A DNA stretch of 56,827 bases from Prevotella sp. (lineage in GTDB: Bacteria > Bacteroidota > Bacteroidia > Bacteroidales > Bacteroidaceae): NCBI GenBank assembly GCA_017623655.1, contig JAGAON010000001.1, positions 108,233 to 165,059 of the forward strand, given 5' to 3'. Below, piece after piece: positions 1,215-56,460 of the stretch; position 1 is the first letter of the stretch, and the number at the start of each line of letters is the position of its first letter. A program made the position numbers and the translations under genes. The notes beneath the pieces are model-generated. The model made no database searches, was not told the DNA's origin, and worked only from the letters and a program-made list of their open reading frames with translations.

Positions 1215-1302
1215 TAATCAGGTGCTGATTATGCGGTAAACAGGTGCTGATTACCATGTAATCGGCGGCCTTTTGCAGGGTAATCGGCACCTGATTGCGA
1301 CG
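1215..1302. repeat. R22 array a: four 22-bp units
   Basis: Four contiguous 22-bp units. Each has an arm AATCAG or a variant, a core (GTG, CGG or CAC), an arm CTGATT or CCTTTT, and a 6-bp linker ending in G. It lies between family A and the GH3 promoter. Confidence 0.9.
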
Positions 1303-1408
1303 GCGGCCGATACGCCCGTTTTTCAGAATCTGCAATCCCCTGCCATCGCCGGACGGGGCTTTTTTGTTTCATACAAGTGGTAAATTCGGAGAAATAAGAG
1401 GCGGAAAG

Positions 1409-1439
1409 TTGCAAATGTCAGATAGTTTCGTTAACTTTG
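1409..1439 (+). promoter_or_regulatory. Bacteroidetes promoter for the GH3 gene
   Basis: TTG at 1409-1411, then 20 bp, then TAACTTTG at 1432-1439, matching the -33/-7 consensus. The start codon is 36 bp downstream. Confidence 0.75.
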
Positions 1440-1475
1440 CACAATGACTAACTGTAACTAACACATTAATATTAT

Positions 1476-4067
1476 ATGACGCGAATCAAACACTTTGTCG
1501 CCGCTCTCGCCCTTTTCTCAGGCACGGCGGCGCAGGCGCAACAGCCTATTCCCTATCAAGTATCAAAGGCGGAGATGCTGCCTTACCAGAATCCCGCGCT
1601 CTCTTCACGCCAGAGGGCGGAAGACCTTTGCCGGCGGCTGACGCTGGAAGAGAAGGCGCGCATAATGATGAACGGCAGCGGAGCCGTCGAGCGCCTCCAC
1701 GTTCCGATGTATGAATGGTGGAGCGAGGGGCTGCACGGCGTGGGACGCAACGGTTACAGCACCGTCTTCCCCATCACGATGATGATGGCGGCGACATGGA
1801 ATGACGCTCTTGTGCATGACGTGTTCGACAAGGTTTCGGACGAGATGCGCGTCAAGAACACGCAGGCCCGCCACGCCGGCGTGGTGAAACGCTATCAGGG
1901 TACCAGCGTGTGGACACCCAACATCAACATCTTCCGTGACCCGCGTTGGGGCAGGGGACAGGAGACTTACGGCGAGGACCCGTACCTCACGGAGCGCATG
2001 GGACTTGCCGTAGTGAGCGGATTGCAGGGCACTGACCTTGCCACCGGCCGCCTCGTGGGACACAAATACTACAAGCTCCTTGCCTGCGCCAAGCACTTTG
2101 CGGTGCACAGCGGCCCAGAATGGAACCGTCATACCTTCGACATACAGCAGCTTCCGGAGCGTGACCTGTGGGAGACGTATCTCCCGGCGTTCAAGTCTCT
2201 TGTGCAGAAAGGCAACGTGCGCGAGGTGATGTGCGCCTACCAGCGCATCGACGGCGACCCGTGCTGCGGCTCGAACCGCTATTTGCAGCAGATACTCCGT
2301 GACGAATGGAAGTTCGACGGCCTTGTGGTCTCGGACTGCGGCGCCATCGGCGACTTCTGGAAGAAGGGTCACCATGAGGTCAGCCCCGACCCCAAGGCGG
2401 CGTCGGCAAAGGCCGTTCTCAGCGGTACCGACGTGGAGTGCGGCGGAGAATACAAGAGTCTGCCGGAGGCCGTGAAGGCGGGACAGATAACGGAGGAGCA
2501 GATAAACACCAGCGTGATACGCCTGCTGGAGGCGCGTTTTGACGTTGGCGACTTCGACAGTGACGACCTTGTTGACTGGACAGGCATCCCCGCGTCGTGC
2601 GTAGCGTCCAAGGAACACAAGGCTCTCGCCCTTGAAGCGGCGCGCCAGGGCGTGGTGCTGCTTCAGAACCGCAACAATATCCTGCCGCTGCAAAAGTCTG
2701 CCCGCATCGCCGTTGTAGGCCCTAACGCCACCGATTCGCTGATGCTGTGGGGCAACTATACGGGCTATGCCACCAAGACCGTCAGCATACTGGAGGGCAT
2801 AAAGAGCCTTGCCGCCGACGTGAAGTATGTGGAGGGCTGCGGATTCACGCGCAACGAACAGCTCGTAAGCCGCTTCGGCAACTTCCGCACGAGTGACGGC
2901 AAGCCCGGAATGACGGCCACATACTGGAACAATACAGAGATGAAGGGCGAGCCGTGTGCCACCGCCCTCTGCACCGCCCCGCTCAATTTCTCCAACGGAG
3001 GAGCCACGGTCTTCGCGCCGGGCGTTAACCTTTACGACTTCACCGCACGCTATGAGGGCGTGTATAAGGCCGACAGGACGGAGAAACTGCTCTTCACCAT
3101 CGCCGCGGACGACCGTATGCGCATCATAATCGGCACCGACACCCTCGTCGATGTGTGGAAAAGCCGTGCGCGGGTGCAGACGTCCGCCAAGGAATATAAG
3201 GTGGAGGCAGGCAGGGAGTACCCCGTCATCGTGGAGTATATGCAGGGCGATGCCGCCGCGGCATTGAAGTTTGACGTGGGCGTAATGGCCACCGTCACGC
3301 CGGAAAACCTTGTCAACAACCTTGCGGACCGTGACGTGGTGGTCTTCGTCGGAGGCATTTCCCCGGCCTTGGAAGGCGAGGAGATGAAGGTCAGCGACCC
3401 CGGGTTCAAGGGCGGAGACCGCACCAGCATAGAGTTGCCGCAGTCGCAGCGTGACATAGTAAAGGCTCTTGCCGAGGCTGGAAAGAAGATAGTCTTCATC
3501 AATTGTTCGGGCGGTGCCATGGCACTTGCGCCCGAGGCGCGGCGTTGCGACGGCATCATGCAGGCGTGGTATGCCGGCGAACAGGGCGGAACGGCCATCG
3601 CCGAGGTGCTCTTCGGCGACGTGAACCCGTCGGGAAAACTGCCCGTCACCTTCTACAAGGACGACTCGCAGCTGCCCGATTTCCTCGACTACACCATGAA
3701 GAACCGCACCTACCGCTACTTCAAGGGCGAGCCGCAATGGCCTTTTGGCTACGGTTTGTCATACACGACGTTCGCCAAGTCAAAGGCGAAGGTGAAGAAG
3801 TCGAAGGACGCCTGCACCGTGTCGCTCACCGTAAGCAATACCGGCAGCCGTGACGGCGACGAGGTGGTGCAGGTCTATCTGCGTAACCCCAAGGACACGG
3901 AAGGCCCAGTAAAGACCCTCCGCGCCTACCAACGCGTGTCGCTGAAGGCCGGGGAAACCAAGCCCGTGACCATCACCCTGACCGGCGACCAGCTGCTGTG
4001 GTGGGATAAGGCCAGCAACACCATGCGCCAAATGCAGCCGAAAGACTATGAGGTGACGGTGGAATAA
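1476..4067 (+). CDS. Glycoside hydrolase family 3 protein (beta-glucosidase/beta-xylosidase type) with PA14 insert
   Basis: Predicted periplasmic exo-glycosidase that removes terminal beta-linked sugars from oligosaccharides. An N-terminal signal peptide (about 21 residues, ending AQAQQ) is followed by the GH3 TIM barrel (about 45-330). The nucleophile Asp lies in VVSDCGAI at about residue 287. The second GH3 domain begins near 410 and is interrupted by a PA14 module at about 475-600. A fibronectin-III-like end lies at about 775-850. Length 863 aa is normal for PA14-type GH3 enzymes. The substrate cannot be fixed; beta-xylosidase or beta-glucosidase are the likeliest. The DUF1593 gene follows after 14 bp and is probably co-transcribed. 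Confidence 0.93.
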   Translation: MTRIKHFVAALALFSGTAAQAQQPIPYQVSKAEMLPYQNPALSSRQRAEDLCRRLTLEEKARIMMNGSGAVERLHVPMYEWWSEGLHGVGRNGYSTVFPITMMMAATWNDALVHDVFDKVSDEMRVKNTQARHAGVVKRYQGTSVWTPNINIFRDPRWGRGQETYGEDPYLTERMGLAVVSGLQGTDLATGRLVGHKYYKLLACAKHFAVHSGPEWNRHTFDIQQLPERDLWETYLPAFKSLVQKGNVREVMCAYQRIDGDPCCGSNRYLQQILRDEWKFDGLVVSDCGAIGDFWKKGHHEVSPDPKAASAKAVLSGTDVECGGEYKSLPEAVKAGQITEEQINTSVIRLLEARFDVGDFDSDDLVDWTGIPASCVASKEHKALALEAARQGVVLLQNRNNILPLQKSARIAVVGPNATDSLMLWGNYTGYATKTVSILEGIKSLAADVKYVEGCGFTRNEQLVSRFGNFRTSDGKPGMTATYWNNTEMKGEPCATALCTAPLNFSNGGATVFAPGVNLYDFTARYEGVYKADRTEKLLFTIAADDRMRIIIGTDTLVDVWKSRARVQTSAKEYKVEAGREYPVIVEYMQGDAAAALKFDVGVMATVTPENLVNNLADRDVVVFVGGISPALEGEEMKVSDPGFKGGDRTSIELPQSQRDIVKALAEAGKKIVFINCSGGAMALAPEARRCDGIMQAWYAGEQGGTAIAEVLFGDVNPSGKLPVTFYKDDSQLPDFLDYTMKNRTYRYFKGEPQWPFGYGLSYTTFAKSKAKVKKSKDACTVSLTVSNTGSRDGDEVVQVYLRNPKDTEGPVKTLRAYQRVSLKAGETKPVTITLTGDQLLWWDKASNTMRQMQPKDYEVTVE

Positions 4068-4081
4068 AAGAAAGAAATAAG

Positions 4082-5368
4082 ATGGGGAAGACACATATTA
4101 TATTATTATCGGCGCTTATGTCCCTTGCGATGACTTGCCGGTTGCACGCCGCCGACACCGCAAACAGGCAGCGTGTGCTGATAAGCACGGACATAGGCGG
4201 CACGGACCCTGACGACAACCAGTCGATGATTCACGCCCTGATGTACTCCGACTGCTTTGACTTGGAGGGGCTGGTGTCCTCCCCCTCTTACGGAAAAGGG
4301 AGCAAGGAGGAGATACTGCGCATGATTTCCCTGTACGAAAAGGAACTGCCGCGGCTGCGGAAGCATATCAAGGGCCTCATGAGTCCCAAGCGGTTGCGTG
4401 CCGTTACGAAGCAGGGGCGCAAGGGAGCGGCTCCCTATTGCGGTTATGACACCCTCACGGAAGGCTCGCAGTGGATAGTGAAGTGCGCGCGGCGCAAGAG
4501 CGACCGCCCGCTGTGGGTGTCGGTATGGGGCGGCTTGGAGGACGTGGCTCAGGCGCTGCATGACGCTCCTGACATAGCGGACAAGATACGTGTCTATTGG
4601 ATAGGAGGCCCGAACAAGAAGTGGAGCACCAACAGTTACGCCTACATAGTGGAGAACTTCCCCGGCCTATGGATGATAGAGGCCAACGCTTCGTACCGTG
4701 GTTTCATCACGGACAATAAGGTTAAGGACAAGTATAACTACGGTTATTACGACGCATACATGAAAGGTGCGGGGCTGATCGGCGCCGATTTCATCAACTA
4801 TTACAAGGGAGTGCCCAAGATGGGGGACACGCCGGCGCTGCTGTATGTAATGAACGGAGACCCCGACAACCCGCAGGGAGAGTCGTGGGGCGGCAGCTTT
4901 GAGCCTGCCGGACGCAGCTCGCGCCCCGTGTTCTACCGTCCCACGACGGAAAAGGACACCGTGCCCGTGTATTCAATCATGGAGTTTCACGTCAAGGGAC
5001 CGGTGAAAAACGACATCGCCCCGGACTCCGTGTGCTTCAAGTTTGAGATACGCAACCAAGTGTGGGACGGCTTCTACCTCGGCAACGGAGACTATGTTGT
5101 CCGCCATTCCACCTACAACACCGGGACACTGCCCTATAAGGTGACCTCTCACATATCCGGCTTCCCCTGTTATGAGGGTGCCATCACCGTTGAGAACCTG
5201 TGGCCGGGACGCGAGAGTTCCACCGACTACAAGGTCGGCCCGCATTGGTTTACGGACAAGAGTGACCCCTCCCTGTTCTGGCATAACCTGCAAGGAGCGC
5301 AGACAGTGTATAAATGGCGGCAGGAGGTAATGGAAGACTGGGGCAAACGGTTGGGGTATCTTAAATAG
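4082..5368 (+). CDS. DUF1593 (nucleoside-hydrolase-like) secreted protein
   Basis: 428 aa. A signal peptide (ends near LHAADT) is followed by a nucleoside-hydrolase-like fold. The Asp-rich motif STDIGGTDPDD near residues 35-45 resembles the calcium-binding DxDxxxDD loop of nucleoside hydrolases. The DUF1593/Sde182 family often lies near polysaccharide-degradation genes, and the GH3 gene directly upstream fits that. The actual substrate is unknown; an N- or O-glycoside hydrolase is plausible. It ends before a 380-bp spacer that holds a degenerate R22 pair and the next gene's promoter. Confidence 0.85.
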   Translation: MGKTHIILLSALMSLAMTCRLHAADTANRQRVLISTDIGGTDPDDNQSMIHALMYSDCFDLEGLVSSPSYGKGSKEEILRMISLYEKELPRLRKHIKGLMSPKRLRAVTKQGRKGAAPYCGYDTLTEGSQWIVKCARRKSDRPLWVSVWGGLEDVAQALHDAPDIADKIRVYWIGGPNKKWSTNSYAYIVENFPGLWMIEANASYRGFITDNKVKDKYNYGYYDAYMKGAGLIGADFINYYKGVPKMGDTPALLYVMNGDPDNPQGESWGGSFEPAGRSSRPVFYRPTTEKDTVPVYSIMEFHVKGPVKNDIAPDSVCFKFEIRNQVWDGFYLGNGDYVVRHSTYNTGTLPYKVTSHISGFPCYEGAITVENLWPGRESSTDYKVGPHWFTDKSDPSLFWHNLQGAQTVYKWRQEVMEDWGKRLGYLK

Positions 5369-5478
5369 TGCGCAGCCGGCCTTTGACGCTCGTGGAAGAA
5401 GTCCCTGCCCCGTGATTGTGCCGGATATTATAACTTGTTATTATACAGTTCAATCCAGACGAGGATGCTGTGTGATTG

Positions 5479-5522
5479 TAAAAGAGTGCTGATTATACGG
5501 TATAATCGGCACCCGTTTGCGG
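5479..5522. repeat. R22 array b: degenerate two-unit copy
   Basis: Two 22-bp units (AAAAGAGTGCTGATT, then a shifted AATCGGCACCCGTTT). It is the weakest of the eleven R22 loci. The rest of the 5369-5747 gap shows nothing except the promoter at 5685-5715. Confidence 0.6.
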
Positions 5523-5684
5523 AGCGTCCTCACCGCGTCAGGTGACGGATGTTCGTTACACGGCAGGATACCGTTCTCGCTTTTGGAGGCAAAGACAATG
5601 CTTCCATGACTTGCAAAAAGTGAGAAAACAGGCGGATTTACCGGAATAAAAAGTGAGAAAACGTACATAAATCCGGAAATAAAT

Positions 5685-5715
5685 TTTGAGATTTCGATAT
5701 AAATGGTTATCTTTG
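5685..5715 (+). promoter_or_regulatory. Bacteroidetes promoter for the AAA+/DUF4143 gene
   Basis: TTTG at 5685-5688, 19 bp, TATCTTTG at 5708-5715; start codon 32 bp further on. Confidence 0.75.
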
Positions 5716-5747
5716 CACTCAATATCAATATGTTATAATGGAACTGT

Positions 5748-7088
5748 ATGGACAGAATCTTTCAACGGAAAATATATGACCGGTTACTTGATTGGAAAAA
5801 AAGTCAGGATGGTAACACTGCGCTGTTGATAAAAGGTGCCAGGCGTGTAGGCAAATCTACTATTGCGGAGGAGTTTGCGAAGAATGAATATACCAGCTAT
5901 ATAGTAGTGGATTTTGCGGACGCTCCTGTCGCTGTGTGGGATGCGGTAGGCAACATATCCGACCGTGACAGCTTTTTCATGCAGCTGCAATTTATATATG
6001 GTGTCAGATTGTATGAGCGGAAGTCTGTCATTATATTTGACGAGATACAGAAATGTCCGACTGTACGGCAGGCTATCAAATATCTTGTCAAGGACCATCG
6101 CTACGACTACATAGAGACAGGTTCACTTCTCTCCATCAAGAAAAATACGAAAGATATTGTTATACCGAGTGAGGAGACACGTATAACCATGTATCCTATG
6201 GACTATGAGGAGTTCCGGTGGGCTTTGGGCGATACTGCCACCATACCGCTCTTAAAGGCTTGCTTTGAGGAAAATCGCCCGTTGGGCGATGCTGTCGTCA
6301 GGAAACTTCTGAGAGATTTTAGGCTATACATGCTGGTGGGGGGGATGCCCCAAGCCATAGAAACATACCTCATGACGAACAATCTGACCGATGTAGATAA
6401 CAGGAAGCGTGAGATTATAGAGCTGTATCTTGATGATTTCCAGAAAATAGACCCTACGGGCAAGGCTTCAAGGATGTTTAAGGCAATACCCTCACAGTTG
6501 ACGGGAAACGCGTCACGCTATAAGACTGCCAGCGTACTTGGCAGAAGTGGGGACAAGGATGCAATGGCCATATTGCTTAAAGAGATGGAGGACAGCATGA
6601 CGGTGAACATCTCGCATCATGCCAATGACCCGAATGTAGGGTTGGCAATGCATGCAGATTATGACGAGTATAAGATGTATCTTGGCGATACCGGACTGTT
6701 CATTACATTAGCATTTTGGGACAAGAGCGTTACCGACAATATTATATATCAGAAATTATTGGCAGACAAACTTTCGGCGGACATGGGTTATGTTTACGAG
6801 AATGTGGTGGCGCAGATGTTGACAGCGGCTGGTGACAACCTGTTTTATTATACATGGCCTACCGAAAATGGCAAGCATAATTATGAGATAGATTTTATAT
6901 TGTCAAGAGGAAACAAAATCTGCCCGGTGGAGGTGAAGTCTTCGGGCTATAATACTCATGCCTCACTTGATGCATTCAAGCGGAAATTCTCCGGCAGGAT
7001 TTTGGATAAGTATCTTGTTTATACAAAGGATTTGAGGAAAGACGGGGATATACGGCTCGTTCCTGTATTCATGACAGCGTTTCTCTGA
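5748..7088 (+). CDS. AAA+ ATPase with DUF4143 / nuclease-like C-terminus
   Basis: 446 aa. The N-terminal P-loop domain (AAA_14 type) has Walker A GARRVGKST at about residues 30-38 and a Walker B-like IIFDEIQ near 93-99. The C-terminal part matches DUF4143 proteins and has a PD-(D/E)XK-like signature: EIDFIL, then VEVKSSG, near residues 380-405. The family is widespread, often patchily distributed, and mostly of unknown function. The gene is visibly more A+T-rich than its neighbours and has its own promoter, which suggests acquisition by transfer. Whether the nuclease-like motif is active is unknown. Confidence 0.88.
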   Translation: MDRIFQRKIYDRLLDWKKSQDGNTALLIKGARRVGKSTIAEEFAKNEYTSYIVVDFADAPVAVWDAVGNISDRDSFFMQLQFIYGVRLYERKSVIIFDEIQKCPTVRQAIKYLVKDHRYDYIETGSLLSIKKNTKDIVIPSEETRITMYPMDYEEFRWALGDTATIPLLKACFEENRPLGDAVVRKLLRDFRLYMLVGGMPQAIETYLMTNNLTDVDNRKREIIELYLDDFQKIDPTGKASRMFKAIPSQLTGNASRYKTASVLGRSGDKDAMAILLKEMEDSMTVNISHHANDPNVGLAMHADYDEYKMYLGDTGLFITLAFWDKSVTDNIIYQKLLADKLSADMGYVYENVVAQMLTAAGDNLFYYTWPTENGKHNYEIDFILSRGNKICPVEVKSSGYNTHASLDAFKRKFSGRILDKYLVYTKDLRKDGDIRLVPVFMTAFL

Positions 7089-7118
7089 CAAGGTGAATAA
7101 CCTTGGGCAGTGAATATA

Positions 7119-7173
7119 ACGTATTACAGCGCAGAGTGTTTTTTTATGAAACATCTCTGCGCTGTAATACGTT
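7119..7173. terminator. Bidirectional hairpin between convergent genes, related to family A
   Basis: Perfect 19-bp inverted repeat (AACGTATTACAGCGCAGAG and its complement) with a 17-bp loop that starts with a T run. It ends both the plus-strand ATPase gene and the minus-strand trpB2. The stem resembles the ATTACAGCACAGGG core of family A. Confidence 0.7.
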
Positions 7174-7215
7174 ATTTCTGCATTGGTGCAGATTTTCTCT
7201 GTTATGTCCGGTTTG

Positions 7216-8583
7216 TTATATTATCTTTTCCAGTTCATGTATATTCTTTGTCACCTCTTCATCGGTTACCTCGTAGTCCTGCAATGAGCCTGAGAGGTAC
7301 TGGTCGTAGGCTGCCATGTCGATGAGTCCGTGGCCTGAGAGGTTGAACAGTATCACCTTTTCCTCGCCGGTCTCCTTGCATTTGAGAGCCTCGCGTATGG
7401 CTACCGCTATGGCGTGGTTTGACTCCGGGGCGGGGATTATGCCCTCGCACTTTGAGAACAGTAAGCCGGCCTTGAATGTCTCTGTCTGCTTCACGTCCGC
7501 GGCTTCCATGTAGCCGTCCTTCAATAGCTGTGATATAATCATGCCCGCACCGTGGTAACGCAGTCCTCCGGCGTGTATGTTTGCCGGCATGAAGTTGTGT
7601 CCCAATGTGTACATCGGCAGCAGCGGGGTCAGTCCTGACAGGTCTCCGAAGTCGTACTGGAATACTCCGTGTGTCAGCTTCGGGCATGATGCCGGCTCTG
7701 CGGCGATGAAGCGGGTCTTCTTTCCGTCCTTGATGTTGTGGCGCATGAAGGGGAAGCTGATGCCGCCGAAGTTGGAACCGCCGCCGAAGCAGCCTATCAC
7801 GATGTCGGGATATTCGCCGGCTTTCTCCATCTGTTTCTCCGCTTCCAGGCCTATTATGGTCTGGTGCAGTGCCACATGATTGAGTACCGAGCCGAGGACG
7901 TACTTGCAGTTAGGTGTCGTCATGGCCAGTTCCACGGCCTCTGATATGGCTGTTCCCAGTGAGCCTTGGTTGTTGGGGTCTTTTGTCAGCACGTCTTTTC
8001 CCGCGCGTGTTGACATTGATGGCGAGGCTGTCACCTGCGCACCGTATGACTGCATGATGGAACGGCGGTAAGGCTTTTGCTCGTATGATATTTTCACCTG
8101 ATATACGGCGGCTTCCAGTCCGAATACCTTTGCGGCGTATGACAGTGCGCATCCCCACTGTCCGGCACCCGTTTCGGTGGTCACGTTGGTCACTCCCTCC
8201 TTCTTGCAGTAGTATGCCTGCGGCAGTGCGGAGTTGAGCTTGTGCGACCCTACGGGGCTTACCGATTCGTTCTTGAAATATATGTGTGCCGGAGTGCCGA
8301 GCGCTTTCTCCAGTCCGTAGGCACGGACGAGAGGTGTGGAGCGGTAGTATTTATACATGTCCCTTACCTCTTCCGGGATGTCTATCCATGAGTCCGTGGT
8401 GTTCAGCTCTTGGTGGCACAGTTCTTTCGCGAATATGGGATACAGGTCCTCGGCCGCCATCGGCTGCTTGGTCTTTGGGTTCAGTGGCGGCAAGGGCTTG
8501 TTTGGCATGTCAGCCTGTATGTTGTACCACTGTGTAGGGATTTCTTCTTCCGTGAGGAAAAAGCGCTTTTGCTTGTTGCTCAT
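7216..8583 (-). CDS. trpB: Tryptophan synthase beta chain, TrpB2 type
   Basis: 455 aa. Catalyses the PLP-dependent joining of indole and serine to give tryptophan. The PLP lysine is in GSHKLN at about residue 115, and the glycine-rich phosphate-binding loop is GCFGGGSNFGG. The long N-terminus and overall length are those of the stand-alone TrpB2 group, not TrpB1 that pairs with TrpA. No other trp gene is near, which fits a solitary, perhaps indole-salvaging enzyme. It converges with the ATPase gene across a shared hairpin. Confidence 0.93.
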   Translation of the reverse strand: MSNKQKRFFLTEEEIPTQWYNIQADMPNKPLPPLNPKTKQPMAAEDLYPIFAKELCHQELNTTDSWIDIPEEVRDMYKYYRSTPLVRAYGLEKALGTPAHIYFKNESVSPVGSHKLNSALPQAYYCKKEGVTNVTTETGAGQWGCALSYAAKVFGLEAAVYQVKISYEQKPYRRSIMQSYGAQVTASPSMSTRAGKDVLTKDPNNQGSLGTAISEAVELAMTTPNCKYVLGSVLNHVALHQTIIGLEAEKQMEKAGEYPDIVIGCFGGGSNFGGISFPFMRHNIKDGKKTRFIAAEPASCPKLTHGVFQYDFGDLSGLTPLLPMYTLGHNFMPANIHAGGLRYHGAGMIISQLLKDGYMEAADVKQTETFKAGLLFSKCEGIIPAPESNHAIAVAIREALKCKETGEEKVILFNLSGHGLIDMAAYDQYLSGSLQDYEVTDEEVTKNIHELEKII

Positions 8584-8717: not shown

Positions 8718-9072
8718 AACCCTGAAAGGGTGAAAGAGTTTAGCCCGGGGTGCAAACCCCGGGAAATCGTTGTGTGCCTCGGCAGAAGGTATTGGAACCC
8801 CGTAATCGGCTTGCCGCTTGCCAAAGCAAGGTATCTTGCGGGCAAGAAGCCGGAAGGCGAGGTGGCCGGAGGACACCGAGGGGTTATCACCATCGTGTCC
8901 GTCTGTAATATTGCCCGGTTTCCGTCAAAAGGCATTGCCTGTTATTGGAAGACCCCTCGTCGTGCTTAGCACTCCTCGCCTGCCGGCTTTGGGGTTCCAA
9001 TACGTTTTGTCCGCCTGCTTCTGAACCCCGGGGTTTGCACCCCGGGCTAAGTTCTGTCACCCTTTCAGGGTT
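8718..9072. repeat. Family A large nested palindrome, second full copy
   Basis: Inverted arms start with AACCCTGAAAGGGT and contain AGCCCGGGGTGCAAACCCCGG. The inner part again holds GGAACCCC, GCCGG and GGCGAGG. The left arm carries the same extra module as the copy at 723-1185, and a stretch of about 64 nt around it is identical in the two copies. The outer sequences differ between the copies, so the parts look modular. It fills most of the 8584-9264 gap. Confidence 0.85.
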
Positions 9073-10425: not shown

Positions 10426-10440
10426 GGAATGACGGCTTGA

Positions 10441-12495: not shown

Positions 12496-12496
12496 A

Positions 12497-15870: not shown

Positions 15871-15956
15871 TTTGCCCGTTTCCCCGGGCGTTTTTCTCTT
15901 TCTTTCTTACCGCCAAAAATACCCGGCAGTTTTTTCGCCGTGCCCCCGCGGTGTGG

Positions 15957-16044
15957 TGAAAGAGGCCTTTTTACAGTGTGAACAGGTGCTGATTACACTG
16001 TAAAAGGGCCTCTTTTGCAAGGTAATCAGCACCCTTTTGCAAGA
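15957..16044. repeat. R22 array c: four 22-bp units
   Basis: Four units, including AAAGAGGCCTTTTT and AAAAGGGCCTCTTTT types that carry the A/G-rich arm on both sides. It lies between the terminator and the pnp promoter. Confidence 0.88.
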
Positions 16045-22396: not shown

Positions 22397-22470
22397 AAGC
22401 CCTGAAAGGGCGGAATAACACAGCACAGGGCTTACACCCTGTGCTGTGTTATTCCGCCCTTTCAGGGCTT
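22397..22470. repeat. Family A core hairpin, 34-bp perfect stem
   Basis: Perfect 34-bp inverted repeat with a 6-nt loop. The outer part is AAGCCCTGAAAGGGC and the inner part ACAGCACAGGG, so it joins motifs from both full-length family A copies. It lies between convergent genes and could also terminate transcription. Confidence 0.85.
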
Positions 22471-22555: not shown

Positions 22556-22588
22556 GCGTTGAAATCTAATGTGTTGTAAACAGCACGG

Positions 22589-22676
22589 TAAAAGGGTGCC
22601 GATTATATGGTAATCAGGCCTCTTTTGCATTGTAATCAGGTGCTGATTGTCTGGTAATCAGCACCTGATTACTTTG
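22589..22676. repeat. R22 array d: four 22-bp units
   Basis: Units in order: AAAAGG-GTG-CCGATT, AATCAG-GCC-TCTTTT, AATCAG-GTG-CTGATT, AATCAG-CAC-CTGATT, with linkers ATATGG, GCATTG, GTCTGG and ACTTTG. It lies between the convergent DPP gene and the toxin gene. Confidence 0.9.
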
Positions 22677-28660: not shown

Positions 28661-28892
28661 ATATTTTCACGAAAAAGTGCGTTTTATTGCACACTTATAT
28701 ATGGTTTGTGCAGTAAAAGTTTTAATTTTTTAATGAATATTTGATTTATAATATGTTATCCGTACAGGGTGAAGGCGTAAGGTTGGAGGCCGCGGGTTGC
28801 AATGTGGCAGGAAAGTCCTGTATTGGGCATGACCGCACGGTTATGCCGCATATTGTTATTGTCGTTATGTGCAGGAAAAACAGGCCGTTCCG

Positions 28893-28980
28893 CAATCAGC
28901 ACCTGATTACCCTGTAAAAGGGTGCTGTTCACAATGTAATATGGTGCTGATTACACTGTAATCAGCACCATATTACAAAG
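28893..28980. repeat. R22 array e: four 22-bp units
   Basis: Two units carry an ATATG/CATAT arm in place of the usual arms, and the third and fourth units are mirror images (AATATGGTGCTGATT and AATCAGCACCATATT), a compensating change. Confidence 0.9.
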
Positions 28981-31878: not shown

Positions 31879-31910
31879 TTGTAGGGACGCACCAAGGTGC
31901 GTCCCTACAA
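31879..31910. repeat. GTAGGGACGCACC hairpin, fully symmetric copy
   Basis: Perfect 16-bp stem starting TTGTAGGGACGCACC with no loop. Followed by a 34-bp linker to R22 array f, and that linker is similar to those at arrays g and k. It may also terminate cysK. Confidence 0.85.
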
Positions 31911-31944
31911 CACGTTGCTTTTCAGAGTATTACAAAAACCGTTG

Positions 31945-32032
31945 CAAAAGGGTGCTGATTACCCGGTGATCAGCACCTGATTATACAGTGAAAGGGTGCT
32001 GATTGCAGTGTAATCAGCACCCTTTCACAATG
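31945..32032. repeat. R22 array f: four 22-bp units
   Basis: Units: AAAAGG-GTG-CTGATT, GATCAG-CAC-CTGATT, GAAAGG-GTG-CTGATT, AATCAG-CAC-CCTTTC. An A+T-rich stretch (32040-32094) of unclear origin follows. Confidence 0.9.
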
Positions 32033-35418: not shown

Positions 35419-35604
35419 AGTCGTTATGTTTATGCAGTGCCACGGTGCCGTCCCGATGCAGGCCGGCGCCGCGCCACTTGGTGTCTGATGTGCAGGCATA
35501 CGGGCAAAGACAGGACCTGCCGCACGGCATCCGTCTTCTGTTGCGTATATATACAAAGGTATTTCCGCGTCCATAATCCCGTGGGCGCATCTTACTTTCG
35601 GCAA

Positions 35605-35808
35605 ATGGCAGGTCTTCTGACTTCATCCTTGACAGACGGCTCGGCCTTCCCGGACTATCAGCGCCGACGGATAACAAGCACCGTCGGCCATCCAGTGACC
35701 ATTGTCGGCCGTCCTTGAAAAAAGGACTCACAGCATCGGGTAATGTCGCAGAGTCACACTGCGTTCCCATCTTAGTCCGGCCTCGATTGTGTATGGGCCA
35801 GAAACCAA
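35605..35808 (-). promoter_or_regulatory. Cobalamin riboswitch in the btuG leader
   Basis: Read on the minus strand: a GGTTTC start (35801-35806), GATGGGAACGCAG at about 35756-35770, CCCGATGCTGTGAGTCC, and at the 3' side the B12 box AAGTCAGAAGACCTGCC (35607-35623). The order and spacing match adenosylcobalamin-type aptamers. It begins right at the expected transcription start. About 185 nt separate it from the btuG start. That stretch has no clear terminator, so the switch mechanism is not visible. Confidence 0.93.
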
Positions 35809-35816
35809 ATGCGGTG

Positions 35817-35846
35817 CAAAGTTACAAAATAATCGTTAACCGGCAA
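35817..35846 (-). promoter_or_regulatory. Promoter of the B12-riboswitch operon
   Basis: On the minus strand TTG (35844-35846), 19 bp, TAACTTTG (35817-35824); predicted start close to 35810. Confidence 0.78.
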
Positions 35847-35931: not shown

Positions 35932-35965
35932 CGCATTGCTTTTCAAAGTATTACGAAAGTCATGG

Positions 35966-36075
35966 CAAAAGGGTGCTGATTACACTGTAATCAGCACCCT
36001 TTCGTATGGTAATCAGCACCCTTTCGTATGGTAATCAGCACCTGATTGCAAGGTAATCGGCACCCTTTTGTTTTT
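35966..36075. repeat. R22 array g: five 22-bp units
   Basis: Units: AAAAGG-GTG-CTGATT, two identical AATCAG-CAC-CCTTTC units with linker GTATGG, AATCAG-CAC-CTGATT, AATCGG-CAC-CCTTTT. The two identical neighbours look like a recent unit duplication. The only five-unit array in the window. Confidence 0.92.
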
Positions 36076-41837: not shown

Positions 41838-41897
41838 CAGCTATCTTCTTGCGTGCATTATAACCGCTTGAAAACCAACGGGAACAGAGTGACGTTG

Positions 41898-41985
41898 CAA
41901 TCAGCACCTGATTAGGTTGTAATCAGGTGCTGATCACTCGGTAATCAGGTGCTGATTGCAATGTAATTAGGTGCTGATTGCGGAG
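41898..41985. repeat. R22 array h: four 22-bp units
   Basis: All four units are of the symmetric AATCAG/CTGATT type (cores CAC, GTG, GTG, GTG). It lies between the divergent topA and dsbD-like genes, so a terminator role is unlikely here. Confidence 0.9.
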
Positions 41986-49375: not shown

Positions 49376-49387
49376 CTCTGAACGCTG

Positions 49388-49418: not shown

Positions 49419-49541
49419 ATATTTTCGCCATTTTTTGTGGAAAAACATTATAACAATGTCTTTTTACCCGTTTCCCCGGTTGTTTTAAGCCATGCCGGGA
49501 CTTGCGGCGGATGAAAAAGACAGCCTTTTCCGCCCGTAAAG

Positions 49542-49629
49542 TAAAAGGGTGCTGATTGCAGTGTAATCAGGTGCTAATTACAATGTAATCAGGCCTCTTT
49601 TACCGTGTAATCAGGTGCTGATTACACGG
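49542..49629. repeat. R22 array i: four 22-bp units
   Basis: Units: AAAAGG-GTG-CTGATT, AATCAG-GTG-CTAATT, AATCAG-GCC-TCTTTT, AATCAG-GTG-CTGATT. No GTAGGGACGC hairpin nearby. It lies between the rimP promoter and the TlpA-like gene terminator; nothing else is seen in 49419-49660. Confidence 0.9.
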
Positions 49630-49667
49630 CGGTCTGTTCTCACCCCTGTTTTGCGGGCATAAAAAAT

Positions 49668-49701
49668 GTGGGGCAAACGGACTTGCCTGTCCGTCTGCCC
49701 C
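49668..49701 (-). terminator. Terminator of the sigma/TlpA-like operon
   Basis: GGGGCAAACGGAC pairs with GTCCGTCTGCCCC (one mismatch), 6-nt loop, and TTTTTT on the minus strand. Confidence 0.82.
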
Positions 49702-49726
49702 GCTTCCACTAACAAATTTTATTTTA

Positions 49727-51760: not shown

Positions 51761-51775
51761 AATTCGGTTACATTT

Positions 51776-52426
51776 TTACTGGGGGGGGATTTGCTCTGTA
51801 CTGTAAGCGAGCCTTGACAGCTGTGCGTCAGTGGCTATCATCTGCTCTGCCTGTGCCTGTGCCACGCTGTCAACCACGGCATCCAGCCGTGCTTCTATGT
51901 AGGCTATGGCATCGTGAAAGTCGTCTGTCACGCTCGTCTTCGGTTTCTTTGTCCCGGCAACGTCGGCCTCGGCAACGAGTTTCTTGGGCTTCAGCTGCCG
52001 CACGTCGGACACGGAATCGCACGGGACGGCCGGCACATCGCCCGGCCTTATGGTCGTGTCGTCGCCGGCAGAGGGCTGCTCCTGCATCGCCGTCGGCATC
52101 ATGCCGTCCCTGTCTTGGGGAAGGTTGAGCCACAGGCTGAGGCCGACGATGGCGGCTACCGAGGCCGCGGCAGCCCATTTCACCATGCCCTTGCGGCGTT
52201 GGCGGCGTGCCACCATGCTGTCATATACCGCCGTCTCGTCCTCGGCGAGCCATTGTTCCATCTCCTCCTCACTGTGTGTCACGCCCTGACGGAGCATCAG
52301 CGCTATGGCCTTCTGCTCTTCCGTAGCGTGCGGACAGTTGTCGATCAGCTCCGCCAGACGTCTCTCCTCTTGCAGGGAAGTGGCGCCGTCAAGGTAACGT
52401 TGCGTCAAGATGTCAATGTCATTCAT
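51776..52426 (-). CDS. Anti-sigma-like single-span membrane protein
   Basis: 216 aa. Cytosolic N-terminal part of about 80 residues (DIDILTQRYLDGATSLQEERRL), a basic stop (RRQRRKG), one membrane helix (AAAASVAAIVGLSLWLNL), and a periplasmic tail of about 110 residues. The start overlaps the sigma-factor stop by 4 bp (ATGA type). This order is standard for an ECF sigma factor and its membrane regulator, though no known anti-sigma motif is certain. Confidence 0.78.
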   Translation of the reverse strand: MNDIDILTQRYLDGATSLQEERRLAELIDNCPHATEEQKAIALMLRQGVTHSEEEMEQWLAEDETAVYDSMVARRQRRKGMVKWAAAASVAAIVGLSLWLNLPQDRDGMMPTAMQEQPSAGDDTTIRPGDVPAVPCDSVSDVRQLKPKKLVAEADVAGTKKPKTSVTDDFHDAIAYIEARLDAVVDSVAQAQAEQMIATDAQLSRLAYSTEQIPPQ

Positions 52427-52989
52427 AGGTGACCTCCTTTCTTTAATGCTTCAATGATTTTGTGTCTTGCCCTGCTCAGCATCACGCTCACGGAACGCGG
52501 GGCTATTCCTGTGACCGCCGTTATCTGGCCGATGTCCATGTTTTCCTCGTTTCTCAGCCTCATCAGCCGCTGCTCTCCGGCCGTAAGCCTGTCCATGGCG
52601 AGGGTCAGCAGGCGCGCGTTGTCGCTGTCTTCCATGCCTGACGCGGCTTCCGCCGTCTTGCCGCCGACATCGTCTTCCGCCGCACCGTGCACCGTTTTCC
52701 GCTCGTGCCGCCACATACTGATGCAGATGTTCTTGGCCATTCTCACGGCAAGCGGGCGTACCGGCACCGCGGGGTCTATCCTGTCACGCATCACCCACAG
52801 CCTCATCAGCGTCTCCTGAGCCACGTCCTCCGCCCTGTCGGCATCGCCGAAGAAGTCACGTCCGATGCCGACAAGGCAGGGACGTAGGGCGAGAAGCGAA
52901 GCCTCGAAGGCGGGGGAAGCCCCTCCGCCGCTCCCTTCCCCGCCCGGGGCGGAAAGGGATAAGTGGCTGTCGTGCTGTGGTTTAGTCAT
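52423..52989 (-). CDS. ECF-type RNA polymerase sigma factor
   Basis: 188 aa. Region 2: GDADRAEDVAQETLMRLWVMRD. Region 4: ENMDIGQITAVTGIAPRSVSVMLSRARHK (read as QITAVTGIAPRSV and MLSRARHKI). The N-terminus has about 25 extra residues rich in Ser and Gly, so a later start is possible, but no internal Met fits well. Leads a three-gene operon with the anti-sigma-like and TlpA-like genes. No consensus promoter was found upstream, as expected if it drives itself. Confidence 0.9.
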   Translation of the reverse strand: MTKPQHDSHLSLSAPGGEGSGGGASPAFEASLLALRPCLVGIGRDFFGDADRAEDVAQETLMRLWVMRDRIDPAVPVRPLAVRMAKNICISMWRHERKTVHGAAEDDVGGKTAEAASGMEDSDNARLLTLAMDRLTAGEQRLMRLRNEENMDIGQITAVTGIAPRSVSVMLSRARHKIIEALKKGGHL

Positions 52990-53055
52990 TATATCATTAA
53001 TCGTTTTTACGCTGAAAGGCGTGCATCCTGCCTGCCTCTCTACATACTCGTTTTG

Positions 53056-53143
53056 TAAAAGGGTGCTGATTGCATCGTAATCAGGTGCTGATTGTGGTGT
53101 AATCAGGTGCTGTTTACAGTGTAATCAGCACCCTTTTGCAACG
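53056..53143. repeat. R22 array j: four 22-bp units
   Basis: Units: AAAAGG-GTG-CTGATT, two AATCAG-GTG-CTGATT type (the second with CTGTTT), AATCAG-CAC-CCTTTT. First and last units are mirror images, so the whole array is an imperfect inverted repeat. Confidence 0.9.
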
Positions 53144-53160
53144 GAGGCCGTTTGCCCTCA

Positions 53161-53185
53161 TGTAGGGACGCACCTTGGTGCATCC
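53161..53185. repeat. GTAGGGACGCACC hairpin beside array j
   Basis: TGTAGGGACGCACCTTGGTG then CATCC. The GTAGGG end faces array j, 17 bp away. Confidence 0.78.
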
Positions 53186-53211
53186 GTATTTCGTGTGTCG
53201 GCGGTATCGGC

Positions 53212-53385
53212 GAGGGTGTGTCAAAATATGGAAGTTAGCGGGAGTTAACGGAAGTTATGCGGCTTGTGCCGCATGAAGTTAACGGACAATAGCCTGAATG
53301 TCAAGGTAAAATCATTTGTCCGCTAACTCCCTGTAACTCCTGAGCGGAGCGATAACTCCTGTTTACTTCATTTTGATACACCCTC
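53212..53385. mobile_element. Family C MITE-like element, copy 2
   Basis: 174 bp. Left end GAGGGTGTGTCAAAATATGG, right end (inverted) GAGGGTGTATCAAAATG. About 90 bp in the middle is identical or nearly so to the copy at 42009-42184, in inverse orientation. Contains no ORF. Confidence 0.82.
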
Positions 53386-53406
53386 TTACACGAGGCGGGC
53401 AGTTCC

Positions 53407-56244
53407 TCAATCCTTCTTCGGTTTCTTGCTGAACTTGTACGCAAGGCTGCACATTACATACCTCGGTATGCAGTTGTTCCACGTCTCCGTGCGTCCCTGT
53501 GCGTTGACACTGTAACGCGTGGAGCTGAGGTTCTGCAACAGGTCGAACGCCTGTACCTTCGCCGTCAGCGCGCCCTTGCAGAAGGAACGGGTCAGCTGTG
53601 CGTTCCATATCAGCTCGTCCGTGTTCATCACGCTGCTCTCATAGCCGCGGCGGGAGAACATGGTCATATCGGTGGCGACGGTCAGGTTGAGCACGGGGAT
53701 GGTGTAGGTGGCGTTCCACCCGTACTGGAAGTCGTTGGCGTCGATGCTCCTCACGATGTCGAGCTTGCCCCGCGTGTGGCGCGATGTTATCTTGCCGATG
53801 ATGCCGGCGGACAGGTCTCCCAGTTTGTATGTGAGCTTGATGTGGCCTATGAGGTTCACGTTATCCACCTTTGAGAGGGGCGATTCCATCAGCATGCCGC
53901 CGTCATCGCCTGCCGCCTGTGTGGTGACCGTGGCGAAATCGACGCTTCGTTGGTACTCCGCCTTGCCGTAAAGGTCTATGCGGAAACGCTTTTTCGCGTC
54001 GAGAGGCTGCTGCCATCCGCTGTTGACGAACGTCGTCCAGTTGCCGTCAACGTTGTCGCGCATCCTTGTGTAAGCACCCGTCTGCGGGTTGTATGTGGTG
54101 CGTGTGCCCTGTGCGTTGGCCGTGGCCTTCAGCTCAAAGCCTATGTAAAGGTTGCGGCCTATGCTGTCATTGCGGAACGTGAAGCGTGTCTTCAGGTGGT
54201 GCAGCACGCTGGATTTTATGTCAGGATTGCTCACTCTCGTCGAAAGTGGGTTGGAAGTGTCGGTCATTGGCATGAGGCTCGCGAAGTCGGGGGTGGTTAT
54301 CCGCGTGCGGTATTCCAGCAGGACGGGACGCTGTGTCTTGCCCCTTGTCTTGAAGGAGATGGCCGGCGAGAACTTCCTGTATGACCTTCTGGCCACGGTG
54401 TCGAGCGAATGGCCGCGGTAGTGCATCCTCTCCGACACGAAACTGTACGGCATACGCACGAAGAACCTCATCGTTTTGGTGGATTTTTGTAGGTATAGCT
54501 GTCCGGTATGCGTGCGTTCCGTCAGGTTATACTGTCGGCTGTTGTCGGTGTCGTAGGCCTCCATCATGTCCTCGCGGAGCGTCGGCAGCCATCCCAGCTC
54601 TTCCTCCTCGTTTCCCGGAAGACGCTCAAGGTTGAACAGGTCGGAATGAGTGCTCGTGTAACGTTGGTTATATTCGTATGACGCCGCGGCCATGAACTCC
54701 TTGGGCAACATAAGGAAATACCCCGGTCTCACGGTGTAATTGTGGGACGAGTTGTGCGAGTCGTTGTAACGGTTGCGCACATCCGTCGCCCCGGTAGCGG
54801 CATAGTAGGTGCGCTCGCGGTAGAAGTAGTCGGACGGGCTGGTGCTGTTGTAGCCCACACCAAGGTCCAAATCGATGTAGTCACCGGACTTTAACGGCTG
54901 GTTCCAGTTGACGGACTGGGAGAAGGTAAGATACTTCCGCAGGCTTCTTCCGATGTTTTCGCTGCGGTTTGTCAGCGTGGCGGCATACGTGGAGTCGGCC
55001 GATGCCGACCGGTTCTTGTTGTTGGTGTAGTACAGGTAGCTGAATATGCTGAGGTGAGCCTTGGTTATATACAGCGAGTTCCATGTGTTGACATTGAACT
55101 GCTTGTTCCTGTTCATCGCCCAACTGTTGCTGAATATGCTGCCGTTGTCGCTGAAAGTCTCGCGGAACTGGCGTGTCTCGTCGTCGGAATCGCTCCACGT
55201 CAGCCTCACGCTTAGATTCTCGTCTATGCGTTTTTCCTTGTCCTCCGTGTTGAGGTTCATTCCCAGTTGCCTTGTAGCCTGTACTCCGTTCGGTATCTTC
55301 TTGGGGTCCCATTCGCCGTCACTGCCGGGCGTCCGGTCCTCGTTCACGTTGTTTGCGCTGCCGTACATCGACACCCTTGTGTGGTCGGTGTAGAGCAGTC
55401 CGAAAGCCTTTGACATCCATCGGTTCTCCGTTCCCGCGCCGACCTCGGCGTTGGCGATATATCCCCGCGAGTACTCCCGCTTCAAGGTAACGTCCATTAC
55501 GTAGTCCTGCTCCTCCACCTGACGGCCGAGCATCTCGCTCTTCTTCGTGTCCTTGTAGAACACCTTGAGGTTCTTTACCGTGAAATAGGGCAGGTTGTCG
55601 AGCATGACCTTGTTGTCCCCCTTGAAGAAGTCCTTGCCGTTGAGCGTGAGATAGTCTATCTTCACACCGTTTATATATATGTCGCCGTTGTCCTTCAGCT
55701 CCGCTCCCGGCAGCTGACGGATAAGCCCGTCGAGCATGGAACCCTCCGGAAGCTTGAACGCCGAGGCGTCATACACGATGGTATCGCCCTTGTATGCCAC
55801 CTGTATGCGTGTGCCCTTGACCACCACGCCGTCCAGATCCACGTCCTTATACACGTCGTCCTGCTTCTTCTTCATCAGTATGGTGGGTACTTCCTTGTAG
55901 CGGTTGCGGCTGAGATTGGTCAGCTCATAGTTCACGCAAGTATCGCGGTAGCCGTCGGCGGTGGCGCGGATTATGTATTTTTTTTCCTCGCGCGGAACCT
56001 GAAACTGATACCATGACCATGTGCCCGTCTCGCGGGTGTGGCACGTCATGGTATCTACCACGGTGGAGTCGGTGTTCATCAGCGTGATAAACGCCTTAAC
56101 CTTACCGCGGGTGAAGGAGTCAAACACGTCGCCGGAAAGGTATATCTTCTCGGAACTTTTCTTGTCTTTCTTTGTCTTTTCCGCCGCATTCAGCGCGGAA
56201 ACGGCCACAAGCAGCGTGGCGGCAATGATGGTTATTAATCGCAT
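53407..56244 (-). CDS. Outer-membrane beta-barrel protein with TonB-receptor-like plug
   Basis: About 945 aa from the ATG at 56244 (MRLITIIAATLLVAVSA signal peptide); the longer ORF from 56325 is not signal-like. Order: a carboxypeptidase-regulatory-like beta domain (about 45-125), a plug-like part (VVVKGTRIQVAYKGDTIVYDA; LIRQLPGAELKDNGDIYINGV), then a long barrel of alternating aromatic strands, ending KFSKKPKKD. It fits the outer-membrane barrel family related to TonB-dependent receptors. No SusD partner and no B12 signature. The substrate is unknown. Confidence 0.85.
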   Translation of the reverse strand: MRLITIIAATLLVAVSALNAAEKTKKDKKSSEKIYLSGDVFDSFTRGKVKAFITLMNTDSTVVDTMTCHTRETGTWSWYQFQVPREEKKYIIRATADGYRDTCVNYELTNLSRNRYKEVPTILMKKKQDDVYKDVDLDGVVVKGTRIQVAYKGDTIVYDASAFKLPEGSMLDGLIRQLPGAELKDNGDIYINGVKIDYLTLNGKDFFKGDNKVMLDNLPYFTVKNLKVFYKDTKKSEMLGRQVEEQDYVMDVTLKREYSRGYIANAEVGAGTENRWMSKAFGLLYTDHTRVSMYGSANNVNEDRTPGSDGEWDPKKIPNGVQATRQLGMNLNTEDKEKRIDENLSVRLTWSDSDDETRQFRETFSDNGSIFSNSWAMNRNKQFNVNTWNSLYITKAHLSIFSYLYYTNNKNRSASADSTYAATLTNRSENIGRSLRKYLTFSQSVNWNQPLKSGDYIDLDLGVGYNSTSPSDYFYRERTYYAATGATDVRNRYNDSHNSSHNYTVRPGYFLMLPKEFMAAASYEYNQRYTSTHSDLFNLERLPGNEEEELGWLPTLREDMMEAYDTDNSRQYNLTERTHTGQLYLQKSTKTMRFFVRMPYSFVSERMHYRGHSLDTVARRSYRKFSPAISFKTRGKTQRPVLLEYRTRITTPDFASLMPMTDTSNPLSTRVSNPDIKSSVLHHLKTRFTFRNDSIGRNLYIGFELKATANAQGTRTTYNPQTGAYTRMRDNVDGNWTTFVNSGWQQPLDAKKRFRIDLYGKAEYQRSVDFATVTTQAAGDDGGMLMESPLSKVDNVNLIGHIKLTYKLGDLSAGIIGKITSRHTRGKLDIVRSIDANDFQYGWNATYTIPVLNLTVATDMTMFSRRGYESSVMNTDELIWNAQLTRSFCKGALTAKVQAFDLLQNLSSTRYSVNAQGRTETWNNCIPRYVMCSLAYKFSKKPKKD

Positions 56245-56372
56245 ATTCCTTGTCTTTATTGCGTTTTTTTGACTATAATACGCACCAGCCAGCGTGATGT
56301 TAACAATCTTTTCCGCTTTTTTCAAAAAAAATCTTCACGCCATGAAAATCCCGTCCGCAGTAACGCGCAAAA

Positions 56373-56460
56373 CAAACAGGTGCTGATTACCTTGTAAACA
56401 GCACCTGATTACACTGCAATCAGGCCTCTTTTGCAAGGTAATCAGCACCATTTTACAATG
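56373..56460. repeat. R22 array k: four 22-bp units
   Basis: Units: AAACAG-GTG-CTGATT, AAACAG-CAC-CTGATT, AATCAG-GCC-TCTTTT, AATCAG-CAC-CATTTT. Confidence 0.9.

What the first reader, a model, noticed from the sequence alone, without database searches (positions are those of the whole stretch)
1215..56460. R22: 22-bp modular palindrome arrays at eleven intergenic sites, almost always four units
Eleven intergenic loci (1215, 5479, 15957, 22589, 28893, 31945, 35966, 41898, 49542, 53056, 56373) hold contiguous 22-bp units. Nine have exactly four units (88 bp), one has five, one is a two-unit relic. Each unit is: T, arm AATCAG or AAAAGG, 3-bp core (GTG, CAC or GCC), arm CTGATT or CCTTTT, then a linker of form RCNNKG with two freely varying bases. 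There are two dyad axes per unit: one at the core and one at the linker, because CTGATTAC-NN-GTAATCAG also pairs. The half-site GTAATCAG therefore recurs every 11 bp on alternating strands, on one face of the helix. The arrays occur between convergent, divergent and codirectional genes, so terminator function alone does not explain them. Unit order differs at every locus, as if units are exchanged or converted separately. Candidate roles: binding array for a chromosome-organising or recombination protein, or traces of an unknown repeat-spreading machine.
Basis: seen in the sequence. Interest (0 to 1): 0.88.

Follow-up and report, generated by a model that had tools for sequence, protein, structure and literature searches.

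The report
Evenly spaced four-unit palindrome arrays
Between the genes of a Prevotella-like bacterium there are, every few kilobases and unusually evenly spaced, arrays of mostly exactly four 22-base palindromes; some relatives have the same design written in different letters, which suggests docking platforms for an unknown chromosome-organising protein, although a mobile element is not excluded.

Summary
In 40 further stretches of the same genome plus the window, 98 of 127 unit clusters have exactly four 22-bp units; at a strict score reversed sequence gives 0 units against 398. The arrays sit inside an element of about 165 bp with degenerate inverted arms. A profile-free period test finds 22-bp arrays in five further genomes, with lineage-specific letters. 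Four units dominate in own, G422, G004 and G077; G016 has mostly four to six, G001 about five. In five genomes short gaps between neighbouring arrays are rarer than chance. Seven orthologous pairs keep place, count and framework while other bases turned over; of ten pairs from array-selected loci, five differ in count. Natural arrays fold less stably than permuted ones, though outer unit pairs are more complementary than expected. Best reading: docking platforms for four protein dimers, dispersed like a small mobile element and kept by selection, probably organising the chromosome. Main rival: a mobile element spaced by target immunity. The protein is unknown.

The parts
1214..1298 (.). four-unit 22-bp array
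5478..5520 (.). two-unit relic, 24-bp step
15956..16040 (.). four-unit array
22588..22672 (.). four-unit array
28892..28976 (.). four-unit array; units 3 and 4 form a perfect inverted pair (read by eye)
31944..32028 (.). four-unit array; units 3 and 4 form a perfect inverted pair (read by eye)
31905..31943 (.). left degenerate arm region of the element at 31944 (31-bp dyad plus 8 bp)
   Evidence: sequence read by eye against the flank profile
35965..36071 (.). five-unit array
41897..41981 (.). four-unit array between divergent genes
49541..49625 (.). four-unit array
53055..53139 (.). four-unit array
56372..56456 (.). four-unit array
56457..56495 (.). right degenerate arm region of the element at 56372
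   Evidence: sequence read by eye against the flank profile

Best explanation
Each array is a double-stranded DNA docking platform of eight alternating half-sites (GYAA.../...TTRC, 11 bp apart), that is, four dyads two helical turns apart. It is read by four dimers, possibly one octamer, of a still unidentified protein. The platforms were dispersed as the core of a small (about 165 bp) mobile-element-like unit. Selection on the half-sites, on the size of the platform and on the distance to the next one (a few kb) then kept them. The likely role is chromosome organisation, for example pinning or wrapping DNA at fairly regular intervals. Shown: period, dominant count, half-site conservation, scarcity of short gaps, persistence at orthologous places in one species pair, lineage-specific sequences. 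Inferred: the selection, the protein, its stoichiometry and the chromosomal role.
For: Four-unit count: own 94 of 101, G422 39 of 46, G004 27 of 31, G077 25 of 35. The mean in-phase unit score is +12.8 to +23.5 inside the four units and -9.9 to -38.0 one step outside in these four genomes (reversed controls 0, 0, 0 and 2 arrays). A census from single units gives the same: own 98 of 127, G422 41 of 61 clusters. Outer half-sites are about as conserved as inner ones (own 11.0 and 10.7 bits against 10.3-13.4). Spacing, fraction of gaps under 2.5 kb, observed/null: own 0.036/0.179, G422 0.056/0.277, G004 0.100/0.335, G016 0/0.126, G077 0.118/0.230; CV of the lowest 90% of gaps is below null in all five (P 0.005 or less). 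Orthology: 7 of 9 own arrays with syntenic flanks have an array there in G422, four-unit on both sides in all seven; the gaps without one measure 1 and 41 bp between genes, so they are empty and not decayed. Those seven pairs keep 31.3 and 29.7 of 32 framework bases on average but share only 60 of 85 bases, against 56 +/- 5 for random pairs. Units within G422 four-unit arrays are more alike than chance, which suggests local unit duplication under a kept count.
Against: No binding protein was found; AsnC/Lrp, the family I thought of, is in 12 of 12 genomes tested, including G069 and G043 where no arrays showed. Four is not universal: G016 has 4:10, 5:13, 6:5, 7:1 with a soft outer edge, and G001 about five and about 25 kb apart. 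Count is not fixed at every orthologous place: of ten array pairs from G021/G422 loci chosen for carrying the pattern, four are 4/4, one 3/3 and five differ; of five G004/G077 pairs only two are 4/4. Across lineages with different letters 0 of 10 comparisons (7 distinct arrays) share an array, so places are not ancient. Untrimmed spacing CV is not below null in G016 (1.28 against 0.89; one 88-kb gap) or G077 (0.68 against 0.71). The unrelated GTAGGGACG repeat in own also has few short gaps (0.089 under 2.5 kb) although its CV is 1.00. Arrays were found by their framework bases, so framework conservation is partly ascertainment. Position against origin or terminus was not mapped.
Confidence: 0.45

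Rival explanations
1. The array is the transposase-binding core of a small non-autonomous mobile element; the scarcity of short gaps comes from target immunity around existing copies (as in Tn7 and Mu), and the units matter only for moving.
For: Degenerate inverted arms at fixed distance; empty sites in relatives, one of which, read by eye, is an insertion inside the loop of a hairpin (L139:3648 against L095:17160-17259); lineages with different letters share no place, 0 of 10 comparisons. Multiple 22-bp TnsB sites form the ends of Tn7/CAST elements (PMC9371665, passages).
Against: Seven orthologous copies keep about 93-98% of framework bases while the rest is near random. Units carry about 11 bits per 8-bp half against 6.3 bits over 40 arm positions. 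No gene-bearing copy was seen with the one arm pattern tried on 44% of the genome bin; no target duplication was readable at this divergence. Units are palindromic and in mixed orientation; that TnsB sites are not is recalled.
Confidence: 0.29
2. Operator array for a global transcription regulator.
For: Palindromic half-sites in phase; Lrp-type dimers bind sites two or three turns apart on one face and can wrap about 100 bp (PMC2995911, passages). G077 has arrays in divergent gaps more than expected (7 of 34 arrays, P 0.03).
Against: In codirectional gaps arrays lie nearer the upstream stop than the next start in four of five genomes; divergent (promoter) gaps are avoided in own and G422; ten array-flanking genes in the window are functionally mixed.
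Confidence: 0.1
3. Structured RNA, cruciform or intrinsic terminator.
For: Palindromes, often 3' of genes; stable predicted folds (mean -39 kcal/mol). Unit pairs 1-2, 3-4 and 1-4 are near-complementary more often than expected (9 against 3.7, 10 against 5.4, 29 against 19.8 of 98).
Against: Units 2-3 are never near-complementary (0 against 4.8); 97 natural arrays fold less stably than slot-permuted ones (-38.95 against -41.2 to -43.0). Edge T-runs in own are at background (T5 right 4 of 100, A5 left 6 of 100, background 0.04 per side; G016 has 3 of 29 on the right). No terminator-like call lies on the four arrays scanned. Arrays occupy divergent gaps too.
Confidence: 0.07
4. REP/REPIN repeats mobilised by a RAYT.
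For: Intergenic, palindromic, many copies per genome.
Against: No GTAG or CGTC foot in the unit consensus. Y1/RAYT domain: one in G000, one in G004, none in G422 or G021 (bins), two in G010 where arrays are sparse.
Confidence: 0.04

Closest known systems
BrickBuilt MITE of Porphyromonas gingivalis (PMC4596501; outline with abstract, and one results section)
   Same: Bacteroidales; intergenic; tandem 22/23-bp units between leader and tail arms
   Different: 19 copies; 23-nt direct repeats numbering 1 to 22.8; here 22-bp palindromes, mostly four in the window's genome, about one per 7 kb
REP/BIME/REPIN repeats
   Same: intergenic palindromic repeats in high copy; REP dimers prefer unlike partners (PMC3733652, passages), compare the weaker folding here
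   Different: no GTAG/CGTC foot, no tracking RAYT, dominant four-unit size, scarcity of short gaps
Tn7/CAST transposon ends with multiple 22-bp TnsB sites (PMC9371665, passages)
   Same: 22-bp sites in small sets; target immunity would space copies
   Different: no transposase or cargo found here; units palindromic
Lrp/AsnC wrapping sites (PMC2995911, passages)
   Same: dimer sites two helical turns apart on one face; octamer = four dimers
   Different: no binding shown; family present in genomes where no arrays showed
Palindromic candidate structured RNAs of human microbiomes (PMC8040213, passages)
   Same: 250 palindromic candidates, some Bacteroidetes-only, most predicted terminators
   Different: sequences are in supplements I did not see, so overlap cannot be excluded; no four-unit arrays or spacing mentioned in the passages
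Uptake signal sequences, parS, matS and other chromosome-wide sites (recalled, no call)
   Same: lineage-specific, genome-wide
   Different: single short sites, not 88-bp multi-unit arrays

Membership tests
BrickBuilt | 23-nt direct repeat, variable copy number 1-22.8, different leader and tail | tested here: not met
   22-bp palindromic units; 98 of 127 clusters exactly four; left flank and reverse complement of right flank share one profile
REP/REPIN | GTAG or CGTC tetranucleotide at the foot | tested here: not met
   unit consensus starts GTAA or GCAA in the five genomes profiled
REP/REPIN | RAYT (Y1 transposase) in the genome | tested here: inconclusive
   6 of 10 genomes; 1 in G000, 0 in G422 and G021, 1 in G004
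Tn7/Mu-like element end | 22-bp transposase-binding units | tested here: inconclusive
   period 22 met; binding not testable
Tn7/Mu-like element end | autonomous transposase-bearing copy with the same ends | tested here: inconclusive
   one arm pattern with up to 5 substitutions: 14 hits in 853 kb, 13 at arrays, 1 solo arm
Tn7/Mu-like element end | target-site duplication | tested here: inconclusive
   empty sites too diverged to read one
CRISPR array | unique spacers of about 30 bp between repeats | tested here: not met
   3-nt linkers
Intrinsic terminator | stem followed by T-run | tested here: not met
   four arrays; own, G422, G004, G077 at or near background; G016 3 of 29
Lrp-like wrapping platform | dyad sites spaced two helical turns | tested here: met
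   22-bp step in 329 of 331
Lrp-like wrapping platform | binding by an Lrp/AsnC octamer | not testable with these tools
   family present in 12 of 12 genomes, no discrimination
Known RNA family | match to an Rfam model at gathering score | tested here: not met
   no match on any array in the window or in seven relative stretches

The most novel reading that the evidence does not exclude
A new kind of bacterial chromosome architecture: nucleosome-like stations, each typically four dimer sites (88 bp) long, placed every 5-8 kb. The DNA code of the stations is rewritten lineage by lineage, perhaps through coevolution with an unknown binding protein, while station size and spacing are broadly preserved.
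Probability: 0.28. Interest if true: 0.95.

Novelty: new variant of a known kind. Interest (0 to 1): 0.8.

Why it matters
Intergenic repeats are usually seen as selfish debris or terminators. Here platform size, framework bases and distance between copies look constrained in several genomes although letters and places change. That hints at function and gives a concrete bait (an 88-bp array) for finding a protein that organises the chromosome of an important animal-gut genus, or a mobile element with an unusual spacing rule.

Tried and rejected
RNA/ssDNA structure as the selected feature: strongest column coupling lies within units, with a same-orientation (not complementary) link between the cores of units 2 and 3; folding is weaker than in slot-permuted arrays; outer unit pairs do show excess complementarity, so it is disfavoured, not excluded. 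Terminators. RAYT: no tracking. Lrp/AsnC presence: uninformative. Phage and plasmid collections: no match for the one stretch tried (window:31900-32075); viral contigs: 0 for one pattern in this lineage's letters. Divergent-gap avoidance as a general rule: true in own and G422, not in G016 or G004, opposite in G077, so dropped. Unit exchange between arrays in own: no sign.

In print: looked for such repeats. Searches returned nothing; one search listed 10 of 41 papers; what I saw in the listings described nothing like this. The library holds open-access papers only, and the supplements of PMC8040213 were not seen.

Weak points: gene calls are my own codon-usage caller. Searches seed on four-unit windows and under-detect shorter arrays; searches do not. 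G001 counts are partly inflated by hits in the other register (21 steps of 11 bp), and its reversed control is not clean (17 against 82 units). One search left out the tenth G004 stretch (L222) and dropped seeds with a poor framework score. Gene-context sets differ slightly between (codirectional 71, convergent 25, divergent 9; 68, 26, 7). Spacing nulls allow one array per gap, placed at its middle; gaps of 250 bp or less were dropped on both sides.
Full report
OBSERVATION. The window lies in a 1.93-Mb, 60% complete genome bin. The eleven sites were found as described. A unit profile seeded from the window and refined on 40 stretches of the same genome (796.5 kb) finds 398 units at score 12, against 0 in reversed sequence (406 against 4 at score 8). 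Grouping gives 127 clusters, window included: 98 with four units, 3 with five, 8 with three, 9 with two, 9 with one; 329 of 331 steps are 22 bp. Two of the two-unit clusters are one array cut by a stretch border.

ANATOMY. A unit is GYAA N4 - 3 bp - N4 TTRC plus a 3-bp linker, so half-sites alternate every 11 bp. The half-site next to the CAC/GTG core is 'strong' (AATCAG in 288 of 392 units), the other 'weak' (AAAAGG 149, AATCAG 117, AAACAG 47 and others). Core orientation is monotone in 80 of 98 four-unit arrays (GGGG 11, GGGC 22, GGCC 18, GCCC 20, CCCC 9), about 60 expected, but in only 23 of 40 in G422. Of 157 outermost units with the weak half facing outwards, 117 have AAAAGG there. The eight half-sites carry 10.3-13.4 bits each in own and 9.0-11.5 in G422, the outer ones within that range. 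Mean in-phase unit score in own is +22 to +24 in the four units and -36 to -38 one step outside. Flanks carry a degenerate arm, inverted on the two sides (a 31-bp dyad plus 8 bp), making an element of about 163 bp. Arm scores exceed background in own and, weakly, in G422 (P about 1e-19).

STRUCTURE. The strongest column coupling is within units; the cores of units 2 and 3 tend to point the same way. Units 2 and 3 are never near-complementary (0 of 98 against 4.8 expected) and halves facing each other across the central linker match less than expected (17 against 31). Units 1-2, 3-4 and 1-4 are near-complementary more than expected (9 against 3.7, 10 against 5.4, 29 against 19.8). Natural arrays fold at -38.95 kcal/mol on average against -41.2 to -43.0 for slot-permuted ones (97 arrays, five permutations). 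Runs of five T or A at array edges are near background (own 4 and 6 of 100; G016 3 and 1 of 29), and no terminator-like site falls on the four arrays scanned. I read this as no selection for one long hairpin, with local inverted pairs unexplained.

SPACING. 111 gaps in own have median 6.1 kb and 4 under 2.5 kb (first seen). Against random choice among intergenic gaps, weighted by length, the fraction under 2.5 kb is lower than null in five of five genomes: own 0.036/0.179, G422 0.056/0.277, G016 0/0.126 (P 0.014), G077 0.118/0.230 (P 0.037), G004 0.100/0.335. The CV of the lowest 90% of gaps is lower in all five (P 0.005 or less). The untrimmed CV is lower in own, G422 and G004 but not in G016 (1.28 against 0.89, one 88-kb gap) or G077 (0.68 against 0.71). 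The unrelated GTAGGGACG palindrome of the same genome (65 clusters, 56 gaps) has CV 1.00 and 0.089 of gaps under 2.5 kb, so part of the scarcity of short gaps is not special to these arrays. G001 has 13 gaps, mean 24.6 kb, not tested against a null.

SPREAD. A sequence model from 53 own and G422 arrays hits 7 of 100 genomes searched, own included. Weak hits in G004, G016, G071 and G077 turned out to be 22-bp arrays with other letters. A profile-free scan for four mutually similar palindromic units counts, at period 22 / largest count at any other period from 18 to 26: own 104/5, G422 46/3, G001 15/9, G016 30/3, G077 43/5, G004 36/3; G024 4/4, G069 0/3 and G043 0/2 are negative or unclear, and G010 2/2 with one clear four-unit array in 80 kb. 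Unit consensus differs: GTAATCAG..CTGATTAC, GCAAAAGG..CCTTTTGC, GTAATTTG..CAAATTAC. Counts: own 94 of 101 four, G422 39 of 46, G004 27 of 31, G077 25 of 35 (2 arrays in its reversed control), but G016 10 four, 13 five, 5 six, 1 seven (a looser cut gave 3:2, 4:9, 5:12, 6:6), and G001 raw counts 3:1, 4:2, 5:6, 6:5, 7:1, 8:1.

EVOLUTION. Own and G422 (median 84% protein identity over 87 reciprocal pairs): 7 of 9 own arrays with syntenic flanks have an array in the same place, four-unit on both sides in all seven; reciprocally 6 of 7. By gene neighbours it is 6 of 8 and 5 of 7, one miss of the latter being a gene call over the own array. The seven pairs keep 31.3 and 29.7 of 32 framework bases but share 60 of 85 bases, where random pairs share 56 +/- 5; two of the seven (68 of 85) exceed the random 97.5% point. 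Count is not always kept: in ten pairs from G021/G422 loci that were fetched because they carry the pattern, four are 4/4, one 3/3 and five differ (5/4, 4/5, 2/4, 5/4, 2/4) (one of the ten, L103:15436, is also among the seven). G004 and G077 share 5 of 5 places (4 of 5 the other way, one lost to a gene call), but only two pairs are 4/4. Between lineages of different letters 0 of 10 comparisons (7 distinct arrays) share an array; nine of the ten gaps are about 100 bp or less. In G422, units within an array resemble each other more than chance (3.94 against null minimum 4.26) and 5 of 40 arrays hold two identical units (expected 0.9); own shows neither. Empty sites exist; at one, read by eye, the G422 element sits in the loop of a long hairpin that is uninterrupted in own (L139:3648 against L095:17160-17259).

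GENE CONTEXT. Arrays are almost always intergenic: overlap of more than 30 bp with a called gene in 2 of 112 (own), 0 of 46 (G422), 0 of 29 (G016), 4 of 35 (G077), 1 of 31 (G004). Own: 68 codirectional, 26 convergent, 7 divergent. Divergent gaps are avoided in own and G422, not in G016 or G004; G077 has an excess. Ten array-flanking genes in the window are mixed (glycosyl hydrolase 3, an RNase PH/KH/S1 protein that looks like PNPase, peptidase S46, a topoisomerase and others).

MECHANISM. Eight conserved half-sites in fixed register and a dominant size of four units with the rest free to change point to a protein assembly of fixed size on double-stranded DNA, most simply four dimers. Lrp-type octamers are the nearest structural analogue known to me: dimer sites two or three turns apart on one face, wrapping of about 100 bp (PMC2995911, passages). 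The family is in 12 of 12 genomes tested, so this is an analogy and not an identification. Scarcity of short gaps suggests chromosome organisation; target immunity of a mobile element is the main alternative, and the count differences at orthologous places made me lower the odds slightly while checking this report.

KNOWN OR NEW. No Rfam match, no phage or plasmid match to the one array tried, and nothing like it in the listings. BrickBuilt is nearest in layout but fails on unit type and count. Palindromic Bacteroidetes RNA candidates in PMC8040213 (passages) could overlap; their sequences were not seen. I file it as a new variant of dispersed intergenic repeats whose dominant size and spacing set it apart.

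Noticed in passing
window 769-814, 1094-1139, 8718-8763, 9027-9072, 22398-22469, 56699-56744: Matches to Rfam Acido-Lenti-1, which I take to be the GTAGGGACGCACC...GGTGCGTCCCTAC palindromes; some abut the arms of the R22 elements; spacing CV 1.00.
   Followed up: partly
G000:C3:292123-292467: Single Y1 (RAYT-like) transposase in the genome; it may belong to the GTAGGGACG repeats.
   Followed up: no
window 35590-35824 (-): Cobalamin riboswitch close to the five-unit array at 35965.
   Followed up: no
L095:17160-17259 and L139:3648: A long hairpin between genes in own; in G422 the R22 element sits in its loop (read by eye).
   Followed up: partly
window 945-1019: Unrelated 22-bp tandem repeat TCGTTTTTATTTACGGCGAGTG, 3.4 copies.
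   Followed up: no
L106-L125 except L123 (G001): Related arrays with more varied cores, about five units, about 25 kb apart.
   Followed up: partly
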